Source: Candidatus Paraprochloron terpiosi LD05 (GTDB lineage Bacteria; Cyanobacteriota; Cyanobacteriia; Cyanobacteriales; Prochloraceae). From it: a stretch of DNA of 64,000 nt. Both the position numbers and the translations under genes were made by a program. Positions 17,488-60,982 of this stretch are shown here, piece after piece; positions within the stretch are counted from its first letter, which is position 1; the number at the start of each line of letters is the position of its first letter. Below the pieces are notes generated by a model. It saw only the letters and a list, made by a program, of their open reading frames with translations. It had not been told where the DNA came from and searched no databases. The stretch covers positions 1,721,422 through 1,785,421 of the forward strand of contig CP073341.1 of NCBI GenBank assembly GCA_018141785.1. Direction: 5' to 3'.

Positions 17488-18726
17488 TTAATTCTCACTT
17501 TTGTCCTCTGGACGAATATTTCGGATTAAATATCGAATTTCTCCCAGTAAAACATTGAAACGCTTATTGGTTTCAGCTTGTTCTCTTTTCCACCTTTTTG
17601 CCTCTTCTTTTCGTTCTGCCATTTCTTTATCAATCTCTTCTTTTCGTTCTGCCATTTCTTTATCAATCTCTTCTTTTCGTTCCTCCATTTCTTTCTCAAA
17701 TCGATTCATCCGCCGCTCCTGTTTTGCCACCACCTCTAAGAGTCCTTGCATGGTCACATTCAAAATATCCATGCCTTTTCGCATTTCAGTGACGGTGTCT
17801 TTTACCTCCCTGACGCTTTCCCGAAGTTCAGTGACAGTTTCCTTTACTTCACTGACGCTTTCCTTTACTTCGCTGACGCTTGATGCCAAGGTATCAAGCA
17901 TTTCATCTGTCCAACGCTGAGTTGTCGAGATAGGTAGACCCTTACAGGTTTTCCCCCTCACAGTACCGCCGGGCGTACACTTTCAAAGCACCCGGCTCCT
18001 GGTGTGTCATCTTACAAGAGTAGCGCGTTTACTCCTCATTACTTGTGTCGGCTTTCAGGTCTCATCCAAATTGGGCTTTGAGTCCTTAGATTCCAACCTC
18101 CTCGCCATTGACGTTTGCCCGACGCCTCTAACTTCTGAGGAGCTTTGAGTTTCAAGTTCCAACTTTCGGATTACGTTTCACCCTCTCCTACGTCAGCTCC
18201 CCTTTCGAGTAGACATTTGTCTATGAGTCAGGTTATACAGTCGTGTTTTTCCCTCGGACTTTCGCCTATGACGACCTTCGCTTCTTAAGAGAGTCCTTTC
18301 TCCCCAGGGAATTGGTACAGATTACTCCTTTCCTACTGGTAGAGACCAGACCCTGTGGAGGTTAACTCGTTTCACAATAATTAGATACGTCTGACTTAGG
18401 CTGCTCCATATCCCGGCGGCGTGGTGTCTACGAGATGACCCCGACAAGTTCATCCTTCACGTGTACCGCATACCGTTTTGGTTAGAGTGTTTCAGTTCCG
18501 CTTTCACTCTTCATATTTGACGGGACTGCAAGCTTCGCTGATAGCGAGCCATATCAGACTTTCCCTAGGCCGCTACCACCGTCGGACTGATAGTAGCTTG
18601 GCCACTTAACCCTCTAGCTGTGAAACTCCGGCATTACTGCCAAAGCTCCTTCGGGCGGGAACTGGAGAGACACTCTCCGTGGGGCTTTCACCCACTAATT
18701 ACTGCGCCTTTCGAGCCGCACGCCAT
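17488..18726 (-). CDS. Coiled-coil protein, split by group II intron A
   Basis: Exon 1 is only ATGGC (18722-18726); exon 2 is 17488-17923. Splicing gives a 146-residue protein starting MATQRWTDEMLDTLASSVSE. Heptad-like repeats SEVKESVSEVKETVTELRES and three EEIDKEMAERK-type repeats predict long coiled coils, ending in NVLLGEIRYLIRNIRPEDK. This resembles a small cyanobacterial coiled-coil family of unknown role. A Shine-Dalgarno (AAGGAG) is seen 12 nt before the ATG. Intron B lies in the upstream leader. Unspliced, the frame would begin inside the intron, so expression should depend on splicing of A. The gene ends 15 bp before cobB on the same strand. Confidence 0.8.
17924..18721 (-). mobile_element. 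Group II intron A (ORF-less, 798 bp)
   Basis: On the minus strand it begins GTGCGGCTCGAAAGGCGC (the GUGCG consensus) and ends ...CTACCTATCTCGAC. A domain V-like stem with GAGCCGGGTGCTTTGAAAG lies near the 3' end, followed by a domain VI-like hairpin. It carries no reverse transcriptase, so splicing or mobility must rely on a maturase in trans. It is in sense orientation in the coiled-coil gene. About 490 bp of its 3' part is nearly identical to intron B. Confidence 0.85.
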
Positions 18727-19341
18727 GATAACATCTTCTCCTTGCTGTTTCTCGCTTATATGTCGAGATAGGTAGACCCTTACAGGTTTTCCCCCTCACA
18801 GTACCGCCGGGCGTACACTTTCAAAGCACCCGGCTCCTGGTGTGTCATCTTACAAGAGTAGCGCGTTTACTCCTCATTACTTGTGTCGGCTTTCAGGTCT
18901 CATCCAAATTGGGCTTTGAGTCCTTAGATTCCAACCTCCTCGCCATTGACGTTTGCCCGACGCCTCTAACTTCTGAGGAGCTTTGAGTTTCAAGTTCCAA
19001 CTTTCGGATTACGTTTCACCCTCTCCTACGTCAGCTCCCCTTTCGAGTAGACATTTGTCTATGAGTCAGGTTATACAGTCGTGTTTTCCCTCGGACTTTC
19101 GCCTATGACGACCTTCGCTTCTTAAGAGAGTCCTTTCTCCCCAGGGAATTGGTACAGATTACTCCTTTCCTACTGGTCGAGACCAGACCCTGTGGAGGTT
19201 AACTCGTTCCACAGTAATTAGATACGTCTGACTTAGGCTGCTCCATACCCCGGCGAGGTAGTTGCTAGTGGAAAAAAATCTTGATATCTTTAGACAAAAA
19301 TGGAAAACCTTTGCTATAGTAGAAGAAATAGCTCCAGCGAG

Positions 19342-22300
19342 ATGAATCAAGGGAAATATGTTACCCCCAGAAAAGCCGCAAAACAACTCGGTGTCTGTCT
19401 CGCCACCCTTAGACGATGGGAAGCAGACGGGAAAATCGGAGCCATTAGAACCCCAGGAGGGCAAAGAAGGTACTGCATCGTGCGGCTCGTTTCCTGTGAA
19501 AGTCGCGGCGTAAGCCAAACACAAGCAGGAGCAGGGTTTCCGGGACATCGCCTCCGATAACCTAAGCCATCCGAAAGGGGCTGAAAACGGATAAACGATT
19601 CCTATCCAGGATTACCGAACCTTGACAACTGAATGAACTATGAGAGTGAGGACACAGTCAGAAATTGTGCAACCAAGCCTCTCCCGTGAGGGAATCACGT
19701 GAATCTTTACCTGGCCACCGTGAGGTTAATCACCAGGCGGAAGCTGGCAACAGGGCGGAACCGGAGCTATCGAGCGGTTCGATGGTAACGCCGCTAACAG
19801 GGAGAACACCGGGATAACTTAATGTGAATCATCTACGAAAAGAACTAATATCTGACACTGTCTAGCCGCTTTAGAACAGAAAAGACACCGATAGAAACTC
19901 GTAAGGCCAGATGCAAGCACTTACATTCCAGAGTTGGTGATAGGTCAATGGATGAGTCCCAAAGGTTCAGAACAATAGTTCATTTGGAACGAGTAAAAAC
20001 TCGCTCAACTTCCACGGAAACAAGGGGTTCCAAACCCAACAATGCCTGCTCAGGCGCGGCTGCGCAGGAGCAGGAGTGGTGGGGTCGCTTGATTAACGAC
20101 CTAACGGAAGGGTGAGGGTAAGAGAGGGCGTAACTGCCCGATGGTTTCTACAGAGAAGAGACCCAATGTAATTATCAGAGCGACTAATGAGGTCAAAACT
20201 GTGAACATCACTAACCCGACTTCAATCGAATACCGCAGTTTAAAAGCCTTGAGACTCCACCTAGCAGTACTCCTGCTGACGGGGAAGATTGGCCGGAGGG
20301 CTGACGATGTCTGGAAAGACCTGCCATGGAAGCGATTCCGGCAACAAGTCTTTCGGTTACAACGGAGTATCTTTAAAGCGCATGCATAACGAGCAAAAAG
20401 CTAAGGTCAAACGTTTACAACGGCTCCTATTACAGAGTCGTGCAGCCTCCCGCCATCGAGGATGCCGGGAGCCGTCAAACAAGTAACACAGTTAAACACA
20501 GGGCGTAAGTCCCCCGGAGTTGATGGCAAAACCGCGCTTTCTACACGGGAGCGTCTAACACTGTGCCAGAGGTTGAATAAACACTGGTACCAATGGAAAC
20601 ACCAACAACTGAGAAGGGTAAATATCCCGAAGCCAAATGGCAAAACTCGTGGATTAGGCATCCCTACAATAGCCGACCGGGCATGGCAAGCATTGCTCAA
20701 GTTAGCAGCCGAGCCTGCCTACGAGGCAACAGCCGGAGAAAGAAGCTACGGCTTCAGACCCGGTCGCTGTACTGCGGACGCACAAATACTGATTTTCAAT
20801 AATCTCAGCAGCCGTACTAACGGTAAGAATAAGCTAATTCTGGAAACAGACATTAGCAAATGCTTTGACGAAATAGACCATCAGGTCATGCTAAACGGAG
20901 TAGTCTTACCCAAGGAAGCACTTAAAGGATTAAGGAGAGCGGTGAAAGCAGGTGTCCGTGGTGAATATCCCTCCAGTATTAAGGGCACACCCCAAGGCGG
21001 GGTTATCTCACCAAACTTGGCCAATATCGCCCTAGATGGATTTGAAAATCTAGGGTCTGACCAATGGAAGAGAAAACGGTCAAGGCCGCTAATAAGGGGT
21101 ATTCGTTACGCGGATGACGCGGTCTTTATCTGTAAACCCGAAGCCAACACCAAAAGGCTAAGGAAGGATATCGACGAATTCTTAAAGTCCAAAGGGCTAA
21201 GAATCAACGAAGCTAAGACTAAGGTGAGTAAAACTACGGATGGGTTCGACTTCTTAGGGTGGCGCTTTCGTGTCAATTCCCATGGAATCTTCAAATCTAC
21301 ACCGAGTTCCGAGAATTATGCAGACATAAAGGCTAAGGTTAAAGCAACTCAGGAATTGTGGTGCAACCACGGAAACTCGTCTGAAAAGGATAGAGTCACA
21401 AGTCCGAGGTTGGAGGCAATATCATCAAAACTGCGATATGAGTAAACACGCTCTATGGTCACTGCGGATATGGTTATGGCGCAAACTAAGGGCTGAAAAA
21501 CGCAGGATGGCTCAAAAGGAAGCGGAGAAAGCAAGACGTCTGGCTATCAAAGGGAAACCCTTAGTAGGAGCAGCAAAACGCCAACTTACAATAGCCCAGA
21601 TAGAGAAAGCCTTTCCCTCAATTCCCTGGAAGGTCAATAGCCACGTGATGGTCAAAGAAGATGCCTCACCCTACGATGGAAACATCTCCTATTGGGTTGA
21701 CCGGAATTCCAAATTATATAGTGGGCCAACCGCTGAAGCAATTAAGCGACAGAAGGGTAAGTGTCCGCATTGCAACCGTAAGTTCATGGAGATGGATGGT
21801 GTCGTGGAGTTGCACCACATTGACGGCAACCATAACAATTGGAAACGCAAGAATCTGGTTGCTCTCCACCGAGAATGTCATCAGGCGCAAACGGTACACC
21901 GGAAACGCATTAAAGACGGACTCGCGAAGCGCGCCGTAAAGGCATAGACAGTACCTGAGCTGTATGAGGTGAAAGTCTCACGTACAGTTCGTAGGAGAGG
22001 GGCGAGGTGGCAACATCTCCCTCGACTCTAATGAACAGTATCGCCAGGAAAATAAGCCCACTGTGCTGTATGCAAGAGTCTCTACTTATTCCCAAAAAAA
22101 TGACCTCGCGAGACAAGCTGAGTTTTTACTCAAAGCATACCCAGAAGGGGAACTGGTTAAAGAAATTGGATCCGGACTCAATTTTAAACGGCAAAAATTC
22201 TTCTCTATTCTGGAACGAATTTACAAAGGCGATGTCGGATGCCTTGTCTGTGCCTATCCCGATCGTCTCGTCCGATTCGGATTCCCACTTGTTGAGTGGA

Positions 22301-22530
22301 TATGCAAAACAACAAGATGCAAACTCGTGGTTCTCAATGAGCGCAACCTCTCTCCAGAGCAAGAACTTGTTGAGGATATCCTGTCCATCCTCCATTGTTT
22401 CTCTGCACGGCTATACGGACTCAGAAAGTACAAAAAGCAAGTGCAAAAAACGTTACAAGAAAAAACCCAGGCACAAAACCGAGAAGCAGACCCCGAATGC
22501 AATTGGGAAGATACGGGTGTATCCATCTAA
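19342..22530 (+). CDS. tnpA: IS607 TnpA serine recombinase, split by intron C
   Basis: Exon 1 (19342-19479, 46 codons) encodes a MerR-like helix-turn-helix (TPRKAAKQLGVCLATLRRWE, then RTPGGQRRYC). Exon 2 (22033-22530, 166 codons) encodes the serine recombinase domain with catalytic Ser in YARVSTYSQKNDLARQ and later AYPDRLVRFG. Joining the exons is exactly in frame (CI-EQYRQENKPTV) and gives 211 residues, the family size. TnpA catalyses transposition of the element. The end overlaps the start region of tnpB. Without splicing only the DNA-binding part plus about 27 foreign residues would be made. Confidence 0.88.
20141..21947 (+). pseudogene. Group II intron reverse transcriptase/maturase (intron C), broken
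   Basis: Reverse transcriptase motifs are clear: [41 protein letters not shown] and the catalytic [11 protein letters not shown], then a maturase region and a C-terminal HNH nuclease (CPHCNRKF...[11 protein letters not shown]...HRECHQ). Compared with the intron E copy, three lesions are visible: loss of 2 bp near 20375-20398 giving a TAA; insertion of a palindromic element at 20447-20471 that shifts the frame back; and a 1-bp gain near 21348-21375. The pieces are 20141-20389, 20462-21445 and 21438-21947, so the protein is probably inactive. Confidence 0.85.
20447..20471. repeat. Palindromic mini-element inside RT gene
   Basis: An inverted repeat CTCCCGCCAT...ATGCCGGGAG replaces ten bases found in the intron E copy. 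Related palindromes occur at 27357-27383, 47851-47875, 60597-60622 and 60769-60796. Confidence 0.7.
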
Positions 22531-23623
22531 AGAACTTCACCAGAAGTGGAAACAATGGCTCGCTGCATATCGCTGGATTTACAATTGGGCGATTGCCTAC
22601 CTAAAAAAAGAGCAACTTGTAACCGCTTTCACGTTACAGAAAATCGCCAGAAAAACAGAACGTCCTGATTGGGTTAAAGAGCTACCAGGACATCAATTGC
22701 AAGAAGCAGTTGCTGAGGCGGTGGATGCCACTAAGCAAGCTAAGGTAAATCAAGGGTTTGCCAAATTTAAATCTTGTCGTGCTTCTTCCCAGGTTATCAA
22801 GTTTAAAGTAGGAAATTTCAACAATGGAACTTGGTACCCTCGGTTGACCAAAGGGTTATCCTTTACAACGAATCAAGAAGTGCCGAAACAGTGCCCTTAT
22901 GCTACTCAATTGGTTTATCAAAGAGGTAAATGGTTTTCCTGCTTTCCTGAGTATAGAGAGGAAACAAGTTCAGGGAATACTTCAGTAATTGCTCTCGACC
23001 CTGGTAATCGCACATTCTTGACGGGTTATGACGGGGAAAATATCTTGGAAATTGGCAAGAAAGATATCGGAAGAATCAATCGATTCTGTGCGCATCTTGA
23101 CCAATTAATGAGTAAAATAAGCAAGTGCAAAATCAAACGTCAACGATATAAGATGCGGAAGGCTGCTTCCCGCATGAGAGGAAGGTTGCAAGATATCGTC
23201 CTTGATTTGCACAACAAAGCTGCTTCCTTCTTGGTACGGCATTACAAAATCATATTCTTACCAACCTTTTCCACCTCGGAAATGGTTCTAAAATCTAAGC
23301 GTAAACTCAATTCCAAAGCAGCTCGGAATATGCTCACCTGGTGCCACTATAAATTTGCTCAAAACCTACAGCAAATGGCAGCTCGAGCTGGTGTGTTAGT
23401 AGTTCGTTGTAACGAATCCTATACATCTAAAACTTGCCCGAACTGCGGGCATATTCATGAGCGTTTGGGGGGGAACTCTACTTTCCGTTGTCCCAAGTGC
23501 GGTTATACTGCCGAGCGGGATGCTAATGGCGCGCGCAATATCATGTTGCGCGCTTTGCAGGCAACTGCCTTCACTGTTACAGGTGATGCCATACTTCTCT
23601 CAGATTTGTCCAGCAATGTATAA
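22337..23623 (+). CDS. tnpB: TnpB, RNA-guided nuclease of the IS607 element
   Basis: RuvC-like catalytic residues are visible: D in VIALDPGNRTFLTGYD, E in FLPTFSTSEMVLKSK, and D in AERDANGARNI. A four-Cys zinc finger (TCPNCGHIHERL, FRCPKCGY) separates the last two. The protein looks complete from KIRVYPSKELHQKWKQWLAA onward. TnpB proteins are guided by an omega RNA from the element's 3' end; I expect it to overlap the end of this gene to about 23650. The start is uncertain because the frame overlaps tnpA. The ATG at 22337 lies inside exon 2 of tnpA, and true initiation could be further downstream. Confidence 0.85.
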   Translation: MSATSLQSKNLLRISCPSSIVSLHGYTDSESTKSKCKKRYKKKPRHKTEKQTPNAIGKIRVYPSKELHQKWKQWLAAYRWIYNWAIAYLKKEQLVTAFTLQKIARKTERPDWVKELPGHQLQEAVAEAVDATKQAKVNQGFAKFKSCRASSQVIKFKVGNFNNGTWYPRLTKGLSFTTNQEVPKQCPYATQLVYQRGKWFSCFPEYREETSSGNTSVIALDPGNRTFLTGYDGENILEIGKKDIGRINRFCAHLDQLMSKISKCKIKRQRYKMRKAASRMRGRLQDIVLDLHNKAASFLVRHYKIIFLPTFSTSEMVLKSKRKLNSKAARNMLTWCHYKFAQNLQQMAARAGVLVVRCNESYTSKTCPNCGHIHERLGGNSTFRCPKCGYTAERDANGARNIMLRALQATAFTVTGDAILLSDLSSNV

Positions 23624-23972
23624 GTTTGAGCAGGTTAAATGTTGCACGAGGTGTCTACATGATGACATAAGCAAGTCATCTTTCCCATTTGTCGCATACC
23701 GTTTTGGTTAGAGTGTAACAGTACCGCTTTCACTCTTCGTATATTACGAGGCTGCAAGCTTCGCTTTATGCTCACCATATCAGACTTTCCCTAGGCCGCT
23801 ACCACCATCGGACTGATAGTAGCTTGGCCATTTAACCCTCTAGCTGTGAAACTCCGGCATTACTGCCAAAGCTCCTTCGGGCTGGAACCGGGGAAGACAC
23901 TCCCCATGGGGCTTTCACCCACTAATTACTGCGACTTTCGAGCCGCACACCTATATTATACATCAGGAACTG

Positions 23973-24007: not shown

Positions 24008-25336
24008 TTATTCTTTTAAATTGAGAATTTGATGGGTTACCTTCATGCTCTCTTCAAACAGCATATCCCGGCCCCAGCGCTGTAATTGCTGACCGAGTAA
24101 TTGGTCTGTTTTTTGGTCGAATAAAGGGGTCACCTGCTGAATGCGACAAGCTTGGGCTCCACCACCTGCTTCCATGCGCATGCAACCTGCTGTTTCGGAA
24201 CACAAAACCGTACAACAATCAGCTTCTAAGTTAGTAGAAGAGAGACGCAAGCTAATTAAATCTCCGGGAATTTCTCCCACATCAGTAATAGGAATGGCTG
24301 CTAATTCTGCTTCGATACCCCGTTGATTTTCCGTGGTAAATTTAACTCGCCTGATGTCGTAATCCCCTCCTTTTTGCTCATAGGAAAGGGGTCGCCATTG
24401 CAAGCGACTTGCTAACCAACCTAAGTACATTAATGCTTGTGTCGAGTTGCCTTTTTCGTAATCGATGGTAACCCGATCCACTTCCCAAATAGCAGAACGG
24501 CGTTCCGGGGGGTCGAAGGCTTCTGCTGCTAATTCTTGCCATGCACCAATGCGTCCCCAGTTGAGGTCTACAAGAGGAATACCTGTTTTCAGCAGTTCTC
24601 CTAGGTTCTGTAATTCTCCCTCTGGTTCCTTAAAGCTGCTGGAGTCTACAATAACGCTATTGCTATCTTTTACCAGTCGCTTAAACAGACTGTAATTGGG
24701 ATCTGGGGTTCCTTTCCACCAAACAAATTTGGGCAGTTCGTTAATAGTCAGTTCCGAGATAATTCCGCCAATTCTTTCTAAAGCAGCAGCGGTTCCTCGC
24801 AAGGTAATATACTCGCAGCAGATTAAAGTATTCTTGCTGCGTTTTTGGATGGGACAATAGGCGGATACTTGGGCTGTTACCCCTTTATCTTCTCCCAGAG
24901 TGGGACAAAGGGTGATAATGCGACAGGGGTTAGAAGCGGCGATGGCATCTGCAATACCCACTCCTTCTATGTCTGTCCCATACTGTTCCTTGTCTCCACC
25001 TTCTTTTCCTTGCTTCAATTCTGCTTCCAATAAGGACCGCAGTTTATCGTCTGATTTCCCCGTTACTTCTAATTGGTATTTTTTTTGCGCTGCTTTAATG
25101 GCGGCGATAGTTCTTGGCCCAGCAATACCATCAATGGGTCCAGTATAATAGCCCAAGGCAGCCATCAGTTGCTGGGTTCCATCTGGTTCGTAAACGATAA
25201 AGCTAAAGGTGCTTGCTCTGGTAGCAAGGGGTCCATCTTCATCCCTATTCTGATAACCTTGCCAGATGGCTCGTAGTTCTGCCTCAATTTCATCAATGGA
25301 GACATCTTTTGGTGCTTGTAAGGAAACAATTGTCAT
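24008..25336 (-). CDS. opcA: OpcA, glucose-6-phosphate dehydrogenase activator/assembly protein
   Basis: A 442-residue cyanobacterial OpcA, which binds and activates Zwf in the oxidative pentose phosphate pathway. Residues about 60-105 form a peptidoglycan-binding-like domain (LMAALGYYTGPIDGIAGPRT). The OpcA core follows: CRIITLCPTLGEDKGVTAQVSAYCP, LPKFVWWKGTPDP and WRPLSYE. Cysteines occur in the C-terminal part (LEADCCTVLCSETAGC), which may relate to redox control. The start MTIVSLQAPKDVSIDE at 25336 is supported by the duplicated copy at 27849. In cyanobacteria opcA normally follows zwf directly; here about 3.2 kb of inserted sequence separates them. Confidence 0.93.
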   Translation of the reverse strand: MTIVSLQAPKDVSIDEIEAELRAIWQGYQNRDEDGPLATRASTFSFIVYEPDGTQQLMAALGYYTGPIDGIAGPRTIAAIKAAQKKYQLEVTGKSDDKLRSLLEAELKQGKEGGDKEQYGTDIEGVGIADAIAASNPCRIITLCPTLGEDKGVTAQVSAYCPIQKRSKNTLICCEYITLRGTAAALERIGGIISELTINELPKFVWWKGTPDPNYSLFKRLVKDSNSVIVDSSSFKEPEGELQNLGELLKTGIPLVDLNWGRIGAWQELAAEAFDPPERRSAIWEVDRVTIDYEKGNSTQALMYLGWLASRLQWRPLSYEQKGGDYDIRRVKFTTENQRGIEAELAAIPITDVGEIPGDLISLRLSSTNLEADCCTVLCSETAGCMRMEAGGGAQACRIQQVTPLFDQKTDQLLGQQLQRWGRDMLFEESMKVTHQILNLKE

Positions 25337-34330: not shown

Positions 34331-36776
34331 GTCGGGTAAGGTTCAGGAATCGCTTCCATCCCCTCCCCTAAGAACCGGACGTGACAGTTTCCTATCATCC
34401 GGCTCAAGCCTCACTTCAAGCCCTGCTTGGAATTTTCTTGAATGTACCTGCTTATGACACGTTTTATGTAGGTGTTGAAGGTTGTCGATATCGTCAGAAC
34501 CTCCATCCCTTATAGGTACTATGTGATGGGTTTCGATTTCCTCCCCGTTGAAGAGGTGGTCGTGGCAGATTGGGCATTTCCAATCTTGCGACTTTCCAAC
34601 GTTTTCGTATTTTGAGCCTTTAGACCATATAATCTTGCCCGACTTCGTTCGCCGCTTTGACCAATATTCCACCTGTTCGGGGTCGTCTGGGGAATAAGCT
34701 CCCTTAACTTTGATATGTCTTTCAATCGGGACAGTTTTTATATTGTACAAGTTATGTACTATTCTTTTGCCCCTCCGGTCATTACCTTCGTAGAAAAACA
34801 CCCAATTTCTTTCGCCCGTTGTTCGGAAGTACTTTTCTTTTACCCATTTTCGTGATTTTTTGGGGTGTCGTCTTTTTGCCCAACGCCAGAGGTACCACCA
34901 TACTCGGTTGTGTATATATGAAAAGGTTTCTTTGCTGCATACTCCTCTGTAGTAATTCGCAAAACCTCTGAGAAGCGGTTCTATCTTGCGGATGACCTGT
35001 TCTGGGGTTTTTGTTTTCATGCTGTCGATGGTTGCACCGACTTTCTTGCAGAGTTCTAATACCTTTGACTTCTGTGGCTCAATGATTAGTTTATCCCGTA
35101 GGATTTTATCTTCTCCTTTCACCTCATAGTGTCTCAAGTTAAACCCCAGGAAATCAAATCCGTCTCTTAAATGTACTATCCGCGTCTTCTCATCACTAAT
35201 CTCAAGACCTCGTTCTGACAGCCATTGATTTATCTGGATTTTCAATTCCTCCAAGGATTCCTTGTCCTTTGCAGTGACTACGAAATCATCTGCGTACCTG
35301 ATGACGCCTACCTTTGGGTTACATTCTTTGATATATGTTTCTAACCCGTGGAGTCCGATATTTGCTAACAAAGGACTTATTACGCCACCCTGTGGAGTTC
35401 CTTTTTCAGTTGGGCTATATCCCTTCTTACTCTCGATAGATCCAGCTTTTAACCATCCATCAACCAAGGTATTTTCCCTGACTGCTGTCTGGATGGATTT
35501 ATGGTCAATGTTGTCAAAGAAGCCTTTGATATCAGCGTCCAAAACCCATTTATCGTGCTTTCGCCATGTTCCGGTCTTCGTTTTATAGTCGCCGCGTAGT
35601 CTACTGAAACATTGTCCAATAGCATCTAGGCAACTTCGACCGGGTCTGAAGCCATAGGAGTTAGCTTCAAACTTGGCCTCCCATTCGGGTTCCAGTGCAT
35701 TTTTGACTATTGCCTGAGCGACTCTATCTCTGATGGTTGGGATTCCAAGAGGACGTTTCTTACCATTCGCTTTAGGAATGTATACCCGTCTGGCAGGTTT
35801 TGCCTTGGGCATTTCCCAGTTATTGGCAAGTTTCACACGCTGTGCTGGGGTGTCTATGACCTCCTTATCTACCCCCGCTGTTCGTTTTCCGGTATTTACC
35901 TGTGTGATTTGTCTGATGCTCAGTAATAGGTTCGACCGACATCTTTTCATCAGTTTCTGTAAAGACAGTAATCGTCTCCACAGTCCAAGCTTTTGGGCAC
36001 GAAATATCCGACCGCGTAAATTCCTAACAATCTTTTTTGTGCGACGCCAGTTAATGTCGCCCCACTCAGTTAATTGTCCGTTCAGTCCATTTTCGGGAAT
36101 TTCTTCCGTCATCTAACTTTTCCGTTCGTTTGGTTTCTAGTTGTCTTCAATTTTCGTATGAGACCCAAGTGAAGTCTGCTATTCCTTTCGGTCAAGGGCA
36201 AATTTTGAACCCCTATCTCCCTCATTACAAGGGAGCATTCGCTTTTTCACTCATCCTTTACCCTCCAGAGAATTCTGCCTCCGTTACCTTTGGCTTACTA
36301 ACGGACTCGACCCTCCGTTAGACTCTGTAGGGCTTATCCTGTTGTTTCGCTTAGTTTTCTTAACTGGTTAGGCTGGTTCCTTTCCCCCGGTAGCGCTCTG
36401 GTTCCCCGAATTGATAATACTCCAGTATCAATTCTTCCCGAACTGATAACCATATAGTGTCAGTTCCTGTCTACTTGCCATTTTGGCTAAGGCGTATCAG
36501 AGATAATTTCGCCTTTCATGGGTCACGAGGTTTATACGGAGGGATTCGTTGAAGGCGAATCCTTTTACTTCACTTTCGTTCAGCCTTCCAGCTATTTCCC
36601 TCTTGCTCCTGACCCTTAATCTCTAGGGCTTCGGTTACTTTCGGGGTCTGCATTCCAACGGTTTTATTACTTACTCCCGCCGTGACCGGACTCATAGAGT
36701 CTTTTCCGTGAGGGCTAGGGGTGGAACTCCCTAGGGGACTCGATGTCCCGTACTAAACGACCAGTTCAGGCCGCGC
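34331..36776 (-). mobile_element. Group II intron D (2446 bp), antisense to Uma2
   Basis: On the minus strand it begins GCGCGGCCTGAACTGG and ends CTTACCCGAC. A textbook domain V (GAGCCGGATGATAGGAAACT...GTCCGGTTC) lies at the 3' end, followed by domain VI. It carries an intact RT/maturase. It differs in sequence from introns A-C, E and F. Confidence 0.9.
34343..36112 (-). CDS. ltrA: Group II intron reverse transcriptase/maturase with HNH domain (intact)
   Basis: A 589-residue multifunctional protein: RT domain ([60 protein letters not shown], catalytic VIRYADDFVVT), maturase X domain (about residues 330-450), and C-terminal HNH nuclease (CPICHDHL...THHIVPIRDGGSDD...HKTCHKQVH). It helps splicing and retrohoming of its intron. 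It is the only uninterrupted intron-encoded protein in the window. The coding end reaches into domain V-VI sequence, so the last residues come from intron structure. Confidence 0.93.
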   Translation of the reverse strand: MTEEIPENGLNGQLTEWGDINWRRTKKIVRNLRGRIFRAQKLGLWRRLLSLQKLMKRCRSNLLLSIRQITQVNTGKRTAGVDKEVIDTPAQRVKLANNWEMPKAKPARRVYIPKANGKKRPLGIPTIRDRVAQAIVKNALEPEWEAKFEANSYGFRPGRSCLDAIGQCFSRLRGDYKTKTGTWRKHDKWVLDADIKGFFDNIDHKSIQTAVRENTLVDGWLKAGSIESKKGYSPTEKGTPQGGVISPLLANIGLHGLETYIKECNPKVGVIRYADDFVVTAKDKESLEELKIQINQWLSERGLEISDEKTRIVHLRDGFDFLGFNLRHYEVKGEDKILRDKLIIEPQKSKVLELCKKVGATIDSMKTKTPEQVIRKIEPLLRGFANYYRGVCSKETFSYIHNRVWWYLWRWAKRRHPKKSRKWVKEKYFRTTGERNWVFFYEGNDRRGKRIVHNLYNIKTVPIERHIKVKGAYSPDDPEQVEYWSKRRTKSGKIIWSKGSKYENVGKSQDWKCPICHDHLFNGEEIETHHIVPIRDGGSDDIDNLQHLHKTCHKQVHSRKFQAGLEVRLEPDDRKLSRPVLRGGDGSDS

Positions 36777-45087: not shown

Positions 45088-48000
45088 CTACCAAATAACG
45101 CCACAAGCTAGACGAGGGCCACCACCACCTAGTGGTGCAGGGTTATCGGAAAAGTTATCTCCATGCATGTGAATCATCAAAGAGCGTTGAGTCACATATT
45201 CAACTTTCAGGCGGGGCGCTAACACTGGTATTTCTGCTCTCCCTTCCCTATCAACATATAGTGGAGGTAGATCACCTAGATGTCCTTCACCGTAAGGGCC
45301 TTCGTGACGCCCTGTTAACCATGGATCGAAATGTCCCCCTGCTGCTAGACCTGGTATTATACGCCCCTCCTTTTTACCAGGTCCACAAGCAGCATTTTCA
45401 TGAATATGAAACCCGTGAAGTCCAGGGGTTAGTCCATCCAAATTAGGGGTGATCAGTAAGCCATATTCAGTAATTAGAGTCGAGGGAGATGTTGCCACCT
45501 CGCCCCTCTCCTACGAACTGTACGTGAGACTTTCACCTCATACAGCTCAGGTGCTCCTATGTCTTTACGACGCGCTTCGCGAGTCCGTCTTTAATACGCT
45601 TGCAATGTATTGCTTGCGCCTGGTGACATTCTCGGTGGAGAGCAACTAGATTCTTAGGTTTCCAGTTGTTATGGTTGCCGTCAATGTGGTGCAATTCCAC
45701 GGCACCATCCAACTCCATGAACTTACGATTGCAATGCGGACATATATTCTTCTGTCGCCTGAGGGCTTCAGCGGTTGGGCCCCTATATAGTTTAGAGTTG
45801 CGACCGACCCAGTAGGAAGTATTCCCATTGAAGGGTGAGGCATCACCTTTGACCATTACGTGGTCATTGACTTTCCAGGGAACTGTTGGGAAAGCTTTCT
45901 TAATCTGCTCTGATGTGAGCTGGCGCTTAGCCGCTCCTAAGGGTTTACCCTTGATAGCCAGACGTCTTGCTTTCTCCGCTTCCTTAATTGCCTTCCTGCG
46001 TTTTTCCACCCTCAGCTTACGCCATACCCAGTGATTGAGCGACCATAGCGAGTGCTTGCTCATGTCGCAGTTTTTGTGATATTGCCTCCAACCTCGGATT
46101 TGTGACTCTATCCTTTTCAGGCGAGCCTCCGTGGTTGCGCCATTTCTCCAAGTAGCTTTAACCTTGGCCTTTATGTCCGCATAATTCTCGGAGCTCGGTG
46201 TGGACTTAAAGACTCCACGGGAATTGACACGAAAGCGCCACCCCAGGAAATCGAATCCTTCCGTAGCTTTACTCACCTTAGTCTTGGTTTCGTTAATTCG
46301 TAGCCCTCTGGACTTTAGAAATTCGTCGATATCTTCCCGTAGCTTCTTGGTATCAGCTTCGGGTTTATAGATAAAGACCGCGTCATCCGCGTAACGAATA
46401 CCCCTTATTAGCGGCCTTGACCGTCTTCTCTTCCATTGGTCAGACCCTAGGTTTTCAAATCCATCTAGGGCGATATTGGCCAGTAGGGGTGAGATAACCC
46501 CGCCTTGGGGCGTGCCCTTAATACGGTCGGGATATTCACCACGGACACCTGCTTTCACCGCTTTCCTTAATCCTTTAAGTGCTTCCTTGGGTAAGACTAC
46601 TCCGTTTAACATGACTTGATGGTCTATTTCGTCAAAGCATTTGCTAATGTCTGTTTCCAAAATTAGCTTATCCTTACCGTTAGTTTGGCTGCTGAGATTA
46701 TTGAAAATCAGTATTTGTGCGTCCGCAGTACAGCGTCCGGGTCGGAAGCCGTAGCTCCTTTCTCCGGCAGTTGCTTCGTAGGCGGGCTTCGGCTGCTAAC
46801 TTTAGTAGTGCCTGCCACGCCCGGTCGGCCATTGTAGGGATGCCTAATCCACGAGTTTTGCCATTTGGCTTCGGGATATTTACCCTTCTTAGTTGTTGGT
46901 GTTTCCAGTGGTACCAGTGCTTGTTCAGCTTTTGGCACAACACTAGACGCTCTTTGGGGGAAAGTGCTGTTTTGCCATCAACTCCGGGGGACTTACGCCC
47001 TGTGTTCAGCTGCGTTACTTGTTTGACGGCCAGAGCTTGAGCTGCACGACTTTGTAATAAAAGCCGTTGTAAACGTCTGACTTTGGTTTTTTTTTGCTTG
47101 TTCTTTTGCGCTTTGAAGATACTCCGCTGTAACCGAAATACATGTTGCCGGAATTTCTTCCATGGCAGGTCTTTCCAGACATCGTCAGTCCTCCGGCCAA
47201 TCTTCCCCGTTAGCAGGAATGCTGCTAAATGAAGTCTCAGGGCTTTTAAACTGCGGTATTCGATTGGGGTCTGGTTAGTGATATTCACAGTTTTGACCTT
47301 CATTAGTCGCTCTGATAATTACATTGGGTATCTTTTCTGTAGAAACCGTCAGGCAGTTACGCCTTCTCTTACCCTCGCTCTTCCGTTAGGCCGTTAATCA
47401 AGCGACCCCACCACATTGCGTGTCGGGTTTGGAACCCCTTGTTTCAGTGGAAGTTGAGCGAGTTTTTACTCGTTCCGAACGAACTATTGTTACGAACCCT
47501 TGGGACTCATCCTTTGACCTATCACCAACTCAGGAATGTAAGTGTCAGAAATTCGGCCTTACGAGTTTCTTTCGGTGTCTCTTCTGCAATGCGCGGCTTG
47601 GCAGTGTTAACCCTTAGGTCTTTTCTCAGATGATTCACGTTAAGTTATCCCGGTGTTCTCCCTGTTAGCGGCGTTACCATCAAACCGCTCGATAGCTCCG
47701 GTTCCGCTCTGTTTCCAGCTTCTGCCTGGTGATTAACCTCACAGTGGACAGGTGGGGATTCACATGATTCCTTCATGGGAGAGGCTTGGTTGCACAATTT
47801 CTGACTGTGTCCTCACTCTCATAGTTCATTCAGTTATCAAGGTTCGGTAACCCCCGGCATCGCGGATGGCGGGGGAACGTTTATCCGTTTTCAGCCCCTT
47901 TCGGTGGCTTAGATTATCGGGGACGTTGTCCCGGAAACCTTGTTCCTGCTTATGTTTGGCTTACGCCGCGACCATCACAGGAAACGAGCCGCACTCTTCT

Positions 48001-59662: not shown

Positions 59663-60000
59663 ATCGTCAGGGTGGAAACGGAAAATGAGTTAGCTTTTGT
59701 TCTTGCTCATGAGTTGGGGCATTTTGCTGCTCGGGATACTCTTAGAGCTTTAGGGCGATCCCTGGTTTTTGTCTTTGTTTCTACGGCGATCAGTAATCAA
59801 GGAAGTTCTTCAGGAGTAGTTTTCACCACCGGACAATTGACCAATTTGCATTACAGTAGAACTCAAGAGTCTGCTGCTGATTTGTATGCTTTAGAGGCAA
59901 TTATCCGTCGCTATCAACATGGGGGTTATAGTCTCGATTTCTTCGCGCGGATTAAGGCTAAGGATACTAGGGGAAAGTTGGATGAATATTTGGTACGGTA

Positions 60001-60982
60001 GAAGAAGTAGATTACTCTACCTCAGCCCCGATTCAAAACCGTGCAAGCAACTTTCATCGCACACGGCTCCTATGAGTTTTGGCCCCACGTGATGTTTAAT
60101 CACTCTAGCCATTGACTACGTTCCTCACCAATTTTGGTTCCATCTGGGTTAGGTAATTTCCGCAGTCTTCCCCCATTTCCTTTACTTAGTACTTCCCTTC
60201 TTCGTCATGCAATCGAATGCGGTATTTAATACCCTTTCGGGTTACAAGGTTTATTCGCACATTTTCAAGTACTTTTCGTTCTCGCTCATTGTGGGCAATC
60301 GTTTCAGCTGTTACCAGTTTTCGTTTCGTTCCCACGTCCTATCCGTCGTTTTTGTTAGAGTTTGCTAATCTCCCTCCTTGGATACCATCCCAAGGTGGTT
60401 ACCGACGTTTTTCGTCGTTCCAAATCCAGAATTGATTGAGTATTTAGGTTCCACCAATTTGCCTGCGTTTCCACACCCCAGGGATGCTCGTGTCATAGAG
60501 AGAACCGAGCGGGGATTTCTTCTTGTTTGTCACTGTGTGCTGAGTCTTTCGACCCCACCTGAGAGCAAGACACTTTTTACGGCGGTTCACTTATCACCCC
60601 CGGCATTGATTAATGGCGGGGGCTTCCATTAACCTTGTACTCTCCTCGTTAGCGCCAGTGTGACCGTAGTCCCTGATTGCGCCCTGTTGCCAGCTTCACC
60701 ACCTGTTAGCAAGACGGTAGACCGCTTGAATTCACGACCGTGGTGTGGCCAGTTAGAGATTCTGATTTCCCCCCGGCATTGATTAATGGCGGGGGCTGGA
60801 TTTGAGGTTCCCCTCTCACCAGCAATCTGGATTTAGTTATCAAGGTACAGTACCTCTCACGAGGTCACCTGGTTTTCAGCTCCTTTCAGTGCTTAGATTA
60901 TCCAGGAGCTACTAATACCAAGCAGAGGTTTATATGCCTTAATGCCTATTACTAGGCGGCTTTAGCCTCTAACGACTCGCCC
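60001..60982 (-). mobile_element. Group II intron F (982 bp, ORF-less), antisense to M48 gene
   Basis: The minus strand starts GGGCGAGTCGTTAGAGGC (aligning with GTGCGGCTCGTTTCC of introns C and E) and has a domain V GAGCCGTGTGCGATGAAAGT...TTGCACGGTTTT near 60030-60070, ending ...TACTTCTTC. It has no reverse transcriptase. It carries two palindromic mini-elements (60597-60622 and 60769-60796). Antisense to the host, so it cannot splice from M48 mRNA. Confidence 0.85.
60597..60796. repeat. Two palindromic mini-elements in intron F
   Basis: Both have the core CCCCGGCATTGATTAATGGC followed by GGGGGC and are identical to each other over about 26 bases. Confidence 0.75.

What the first reader, a model, noticed from the sequence alone, without database searches (positions are those of the whole stretch)
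19480..22032. In-frame group II intron in a transposase whose maturase is broken
Precise removal of 2553 bp joins tnpA codon 46 to codon 47 with no frame change, restoring helix-turn-helix and serine recombinase domains. The intron's RT/maturase has at least three frame lesions, so splicing would need a maturase in trans. TnpB is separately encoded and complete. The element could be immobile (unspliced tnpA) while TnpB still acts as an RNA-guided nuclease.
Basis: partly seen in the sequence, partly recalled or inferred. Interest (0 to 1): 0.6.

Follow-up and report, generated by a model that had tools for sequence, protein, structure and literature searches.

The report
Spliceable intron inside a transposase gene
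A mobile self-splicing intron sits exactly inside a jumping-gene enzyme of a cyanobacterium; its own helper protein is broken, but the same genome carries about 15 intact copies of that helper and at least 149 related introns, many of them inside ordinary genes, so the gene can plausibly still be spliced.

Summary
Window 19480-22032 is a group IIB-like intron inserted between codons 46 and 47 of an IS607 tnpA. A 95%-identical paralogous IS607 lacks it at exactly that junction. IBS1, IBS2 and IBS3 in the tnpA exons pair with the intron's own EBS1, EBS2 and EBS3. The intron's RT/maturase has exactly three frameshifts (near 20383, 20449 and 21356). The proposed check comes out positive: about 15 intact maturases of this family lie elsewhere in the same 3.84-Mb chromosome. 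Splicing or mobility in trans is therefore the best explanation, but it is inferred; no RNA was seen.

The wider picture is more striking. Each copy's EBS matches its own insertion site, with 39 EBS1 types in 58 copies. Sense insertions exceed antisense ones 30 to 9, and introns split folC, surE, ureB and the only leuD. The IS607 itself (its TnpB has the "pro-Fanzor" motif) lies inside another, ORF-less intron on the opposite strand.

All parts match the Thermosynechococcus model of intron proliferation, so this is a new and extreme member of a known kind.

The parts
19254..23647 (+). IS607-family insertion sequence (ends within 1-3 nt)
   Evidence: Same ends in a 95% identical paralogue at G000 2354497-2358106 minus
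19342..19479 (+). tnpA exon 1, HTH/MerR domain, codons 1-46
   Evidence: Pfam MerR; spliced product hits NF033518 at 182 bits, cut-off 110
19468..19472 (+). IBS2 (AGGTA)
   Evidence: Pairs 5/5 with EBS2 (one G-U)
19474..19479 (+). IBS1 (TGCATC)
   Evidence: Pairs 6/6 Watson-Crick with EBS1
19480..22032 (+). group II intron, 2553 nt
   Evidence: 5' GTGCGGC, 3' AT, D5/D6 hit, family-wide identical ends
19849..19853 (+). EBS2 (TATCT)
   Evidence: Column that covaries with IBS2 over the family
19910..19915 (+). EBS1 (GATGCA)
   Evidence: Column that covaries with IBS1 over the family
19949..19949 (+). probable EBS3 (U, wobble with exon +1 G)
   Evidence: Column covaries with exon +1: 76% Watson-Crick, next best column 41%
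20141..21947 (+). broken intron-encoded protein (RVT_N, RVT_1 with YADD, HNH) with frameshifts at about 20383, 20449 and 21356
21955..22032 (+). intron domains V and VI
   Evidence: RF00029 59.4 bits; D6 keeps an unpaired A 8 nt from the 3' end
22033..22530 (+). tnpA exon 2, serine recombinase domain, codons 47-211 plus stop
   Evidence: Pfam Resolvase
22337..23623 (+). tnpB (start uncertain, overlaps tnpA), DPG/E-alt type
   Evidence: NF040570 167.5 bits; motif pattern met
23648..23948 (-). 5' part of ORF-less group II intron A1 interrupted by the IS607
   Evidence: 88% match to intact neighbour A2; its EBS1 GCUUAU pairs 6/6 (two G-U) with its IBS1
18762..19253 (-). 3' part of interrupted intron A1
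   Evidence: Match to A2 and weak D5/D6 (29.6 bits)
17924..18721 (-). ORF-less group II intron A2, uninterrupted, tandem to A1

Best explanation
A proliferating cyanobacterial group IIB-like retro-intron inserted, by base-pairing of its EBS1-3 to the target, into the sense strand of an IS607 tnpA. It had lost or was losing its own maturase: two of its three frame lesions lie in sequence blocks also found in intron copies at other sites. It is probably moved and spliced by intact sister maturases made elsewhere in the same chromosome. Splicing would give a normal IS607 TnpA; without splicing only a 73-aa HTH fragment is read before a stop in the intron. Shown by sequence: intron identity and exact ends, empty-site paralogue, EBS/IBS match, three lesions, intact sister maturases. 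Inferred: splicing and mobility in trans, and TnpA activity.
For: Ends and D5/D6. Empty site in paralogue and continuous homologues. Window EBS1 6/6 and EBS2 5/5 with the tnpA exon; in the family 24/37 full EBS1 and 25/37 full EBS2 against at most 7 in 200 shuffles, 58 copies, EBS3. About 15 intact maturases of the same family, e.g. in the ureB intron. Frame lesions shared by copies at many different sites: the lesion at ORF position 1419 in 11 copies at 10 different IBS1. Sense insertions 30 versus antisense 9, p = 0.001 (hand count, test). leuD exists only as an intron-split gene whose intron has a broken maturase frame.
Against: No transcript or spliced product was seen. Shared lesions could also arise by gene conversion between copies rather than by movement of broken copies. 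Maturases can be specific for their own intron, and the window copy is only 86-88% identical to its closest relatives. Exon +1 pairs with EBS3 only by a G-U wobble. Sense bias could have causes other than splicing.
Confidence: 0.78

Rival explanations
1. Dead relic: the intron no longer splices, tnpA is knocked out, and the IS607 is stranded inside a second intron, with only TnpB possibly still made.
For: Maturase broken; IS607 has only one close paralogue, which is itself broken by another IS607 at a nearby GG; a transposase is not needed by the cell, so nothing selects for splicing here.
Against: Ribozyme ends, D5/D6 and all EBS/IBS contacts are intact; exon reading frames of tnpA and tnpB are free of stops; intact sister maturases exist.
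Confidence: 0.18
2. The intron splices by itself or with a host factor, without any group II maturase.
For: Group II RNAs can self-splice in vitro; Clostridium tetani C.te.I1 is a known natural case without an IEP (PMC4424553).
Against: Sister maturases are present and trans action is demonstrated in Trichodesmium and Thermosynechococcus (PMC4649490, PMC2882425).
Confidence: 0.03
3. Assembly or chance artefact (repeat collapse joining unrelated pieces).
For: The genome is very rich in near-identical intron copies, which invite misassembly; no read data were available (inference).
Against: Window copy is unique in sequence (next best 88%), EBS fits the flanking tnpA exon, and both exon halves match the same paralogue.
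Confidence: 0.01

Closest known systems
Thermosynechococcus elongatus TeI3/TeI4 introns (Mohr et al. 2010, PMC2882425)
   Same: Multicopy cyanobacterial group IIB introns; EBS divergence with retrohoming to new sites; maturases acting on degenerate introns; insertion into IS elements and other introns.
   Different: 28 copies in six EBS families there, mostly intergenic; here at least 149 introns in several families, 39 EBS1 types in 58 copies of this family, and about 30 sense insertions in genes.
Trichodesmium erythraeum introns and twintron (PMC4649490)
   Same: Group II introns in protein genes, ORF-less introns dependent on a maturase in trans, nested introns.
   Different: Splicing shown there in vivo for 17 introns; here only inferred, and the nesting includes a DNA transposon on the opposite strand.
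Arthrospira platensis introns (PMC8919778; PMC4649490 citing Fujisawa 2010)
   Same: Very high group II intron number in a cyanobacterium (101, or at least 150).
   Different: This chromosome is 3.84 Mb with at least 149 hits from a capped list.
IStrons (IS607/IS605 with a group I intron, PMC4227781)
   Same: Union of an IS607-type element and a self-splicing intron.
   Different: There a group I intron is part of the element and makes its insertion harmless; here a group II intron merely interrupts tnpA and moves independently.
Cyanobacterial IS607 'pro-Fanzor' TnpB (PMC10711439)
   Same: DPG plus alternative glutamate plus zinc finger pattern, IS607 TnpA neighbour, cyanobacterial.
   Different: Conserved FE[TS]SxM segment reads FSTSEM in both copies here; tnpA carries a group II intron.

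Membership tests
Group II intron (IIB-like, CL-type) | Domain V/VI with unpaired branch A | tested here: met
   RF00029 59.4 bits against cut-off 40; D6 A 8 nt from 3' end
Group II intron (IIB-like, CL-type) | 5' GUGYG and 3' AY ends | tested here: met
   GTGCG...AAT; same motifs at 40 five-prime and 52 three-prime ends of the family
Group II intron (IIB-like, CL-type) | EBS1-IBS1, EBS2-IBS2, EBS3-IBS3 pairing | tested here: met
   Covariation across copies
Group II intron (IIB-like, CL-type) | Intron-encoded RT/maturase (RVT_N, RT with YxDD, GIIM, HNH) | tested here: met
   Family protein: RVT_N, RVT_1, GIIM above cut-off; TIGR04416 292.9 just under its cut-off of 300; HNH motif only by eye. 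Window copy broken
Group II intron (IIB-like, CL-type) | Assignment of the intron-encoded protein to class CL by phylogeny | not tested
   No reference tree of IEP classes was built; CL is expected for cyanobacteria (PMC8919778)
Group II intron (IIB-like, CL-type) | Splicing in vivo or in vitro | not testable with these tools
   No RNA data
IS607 | N-terminal MerR-like HTH plus small serine recombinase TnpA, with tnpB | tested here: met
   NF033518 182.3 bits against 110; tnpB adjacent
IS607 | No target duplication, recombination at a matching dinucleotide | tested here: inconclusive
   Ends located only to 1-3 nt from two copies
Pro-Fanzor TnpB | DPG at RuvC-I and glutamate six residues before the zinc finger | tested here: met
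   Published pattern matches (pattern)
Pro-Fanzor TnpB | RNA-guided cleavage | not testable with these tools
   Biochemistry needed
IStron | Group I intron as part of the IS | tested here: not met
   Only group II matches in the region; intron lies inside tnpA
Twintron | Intron directly inside an intron on the same strand | tested here: not met
   Outer intron A1 is on the opposite strand and an IS607 lies between

The most novel reading that the evidence does not exclude
This genome hosts a self-retargeting intron population in which the EBS1/EBS2 loops are replaced as small cassettes, for example by recombination or template switching between copies, far faster than the rest of the ribozyme (all six EBS1 bases differ between copies that are 96.6% alike elsewhere in their first 700 nt). 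A shared pool of maturases then splices tens of interrupted host genes, including essential ones: a bacterial state close to the proposed step towards a common spliceosome.
Probability: 0.15. Interest if true: 0.75.

Novelty: new member of a known kind. Interest (0 to 1): 0.5.

Why it matters
The tnpA intron alone is ordinary for an intron-rich cyanobacterium. The genome around it is not. At least 149 introns, a large set of copy-specific EBS/IBS pairs, and sense insertions in genes such as leuD, folC, surE and ureB give a natural test bed. It bears on how group II introns change target, how broken introns live on shared maturases, and how a bacterium tolerates introns in essential genes, which is the situation assumed in models of spliceosome origin.

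Tried and rejected
1) TnpB nuclease-dead: a conserved Glu (FE[TS]SxM) is Ser in this TnpB and its paralogue, which first looked like a lost catalytic residue. PMC10711439 places the catalytic Glu of this clade six residues before the zinc finger; that residue is present, so the idea was dropped. 2) Guide and TAM: exact IS607 ends and TAM could not be fixed, so self-targeting is only noted. 6) 5' ends of intron families C and D were not resolved cleanly. 7) Shared frame lesions as proof of trans mobility: mosaic sequence blocks mean gene conversion cannot be excluded.

Full report
OBSERVATION. The window lies at 1721422-1785421 of a single 3,839,796-base chromosome. At 19480-22032 on the plus strand there is a 2553-nt insertion that begins GTGCGGC and ends in domains V/VI and ...CTCTAAT (RF00029, 59.4 bits). 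Joining 19479 to 22033 gives a 211-aa protein that matches the IS607 transposase model NF033518 at 182 bits, cut-off 110, with MerR-like HTH and serine recombinase domains. Unspliced, tnpA runs from its ATG at 19342 only to a stop at 19558-19560, about 72 aa.

That exact removal restores the frame is expected of any clean insertion, so I looked for independent evidence. A second IS607 in the same chromosome (about 95% identical over matching parts) has the junction intact as TACTGCCTC^GAACAG where the window has TACTGCATC^intron^GAACAG. That paralogue is itself broken by another IS607 a few bases upstream. Homologous TnpAs in Xenococcaceae and Moorena align without interruption over residues 5-211, and relatives in the same genus also have copies not split by an intron.

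THE FAMILY. BLASTN finds about 45 large copies of this intron in the chromosome at 79-87% identity, plus fragments. The ends are the same in all of them: 40 five-prime ends at GTGCGGCT and 52 three-prime ends at CTCGACTCTAAT, with unrelated flanks. By 3' end they fall into five groups: B, this one, 81; A, ORF-less and about 0.8 kb, 29; C 20; D 10; E 5. The two congeners searched have 13 and 22 hits and the highest count in the order sample is 32; those are mostly draft genomes, in which repeats may be collapsed. Published maxima are 101 in Arthrospira platensis (PMC8919778) or at least 150 (PMC4649490).

TARGET PAIRING. For each copy I asked which intron column pairs with the 5' exon. EBS1 and EBS2 stand out at single columns. 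In the first 37 copies, 24 have full 6/6 EBS1 and 25 full 5/5 EBS2, while 200 shuffles of the flanks never exceed 7. In 58 copies there are 39 distinct EBS1 and 45 distinct EBS2 sequences (the EBS2 number depends slightly on register). Column entropy at EBS is about 1.9 bits against a mean of 0.37. A third column covaries with the first base of the 3' exon, as EBS3-IBS3 of group IIB introns should: 76% Watson-Crick, next best column 41%. Family A shows the same for EBS1: 96% of positions paired, 21 of 27 copies complete. The window copy pairs TGCATC with GATGCA (6/6), AGGTA with TATCT (5/5, one wobble), and exon G with U. So the intron is matched to the tnpA exon it sits in, as retrohoming and splicing both require. 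Nearly identical copies share EBS1, but copies 3.4% apart in their first 700 nt can differ at all six EBS1 bases and most of EBS2, with neighbouring bases unchanged.

THE MATURASE. Against intact paralogues the window reading frame has +1 near 20383, +14 near 20449 and +1 near 21356, and no other frame change. Fifteen of 58 well-delimited copies keep one frame over residues 25-580 of the 597-aa protein; the copies inspected carry YADD and the HNH motif. Domains: RVT_N, RVT_1 and GIIM; the closest solved relative is the maturase of 6me0. Many frame lesions are shared by copies at different sites, such as one at ORF position 1419 in 11 copies with 10 different IBS1. Two of the window's lesions lie in blocks identical to those of copies 704106 and 1008504. 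The simplest reading is that broken introns spread with borrowed protein. Gene conversion is the alternative, since the copies look mosaic.

DO THEY SPLICE? There is no RNA evidence here. Indirect evidence: among copies of families A and B in open reading frames of at least 150 aa, and not inside other introns, I count by hand 30 sense and 9 antisense (from; p = 0.001). The count includes three introns in one DGQHR-like gene and two in one sulfatase gene, and some ORFs lack a named homologue. Sense copies split ureB, folC and surE (all over NCBIfam cut-offs when joined), a Cu-Zn superoxide dismutase (also over cut-off), a gamma-glutamyltransferase-like gene and others (named from the sequence). 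The only leuD in the chromosome is split by an intron whose maturase frame is broken. It is hard to see an autotroph living with all of these unspliced; this is inference.

NESTING. The IS607 spans 19254-23647. Its flanks are the two halves of an ORF-less group II intron on the minus strand (A1: 23948-23648 and 19253-18762), next to an uninterrupted copy A2 (18721-17924). So there is an intron in a transposon in an intron, in opposite orientations, downstream of a gene on the minus strand that ends at 24008. Both A1 and A2 have a degenerate domain V (29.6 bits).

TnpB. The ORF is complete and matches the published pro-Fanzor pattern (DPG, E six residues before the zinc finger). A guide taken from its right flank would match five other uninterrupted introns at 19 consecutive bases. 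The three bases next to the match differ from the window's left flank, so the TAM may be missing. Whether TnpB is active is open.

COMPARISON. Thermosynechococcus elongatus shows all three mechanisms, in part by experiment: EBS divergence, shared maturases, and insertion in introns and IS elements (PMC2882425). Trichodesmium shows splicing in trans (PMC4649490). The present case works like these and meets the sequence tests for a group IIB-like intron. It differs in number, in the breadth of EBS types and in the share of sense insertions in genes. I therefore rate it a new member of a known kind, with an unusually rich host genome.

Noticed in passing
whole chromosome G000 C1: At least 149 group II introns in 3.84 Mb in five end-types, about one third of which need further delimiting; possibly one of the densest bacterial cases.
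   Followed up: partly
G000 C1 2457205-2460258: The only leuD of the chromosome is split by a family-B intron with a broken maturase frame; folC (462674), surE (2934338) and ureB (1101122) are split too.
   Followed up: partly
window 23648-23667: IS607 right-flank sequence GAGGTGTCTACATGATGAC recurs exactly in five uninterrupted ORF-less introns elsewhere (3663257, 204477, 813017, 1127004, 2425426): possible self-targets of its TnpB.
   Followed up: partly
window 22337-23623; L084, L086, L095: Conserved FE[TS]SxM segment of this TnpB clade reads FSTSEM here and in the paralogue, FTTSAM in two Moorena copies; meaning unknown, since the catalytic Glu of the clade is elsewhere.
   Followed up: partly
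L095 3613-5388 (G000 C1 about 2356112-2357887): An IS607 of another subtype (37% TnpB identity) is inserted in the paralogous tnpA at a GG about three codons before the position where the window has its intron.
   Followed up: partly
window 34331-34407, 45473-45550, 59993-60071 (all minus): Three more group II intron 3' ends of three different families (D, B, E) within the same window; the 45473 copy splits a Cu-Zn superoxide dismutase gene.
   Followed up: partly
11 family-B copies, ORF position about 1419: A palindromic GCGCCTCGCGCGC block with a frameshift separates the HNH part from the RT-maturase part in copies at 10 different sites.
   Followed up: no
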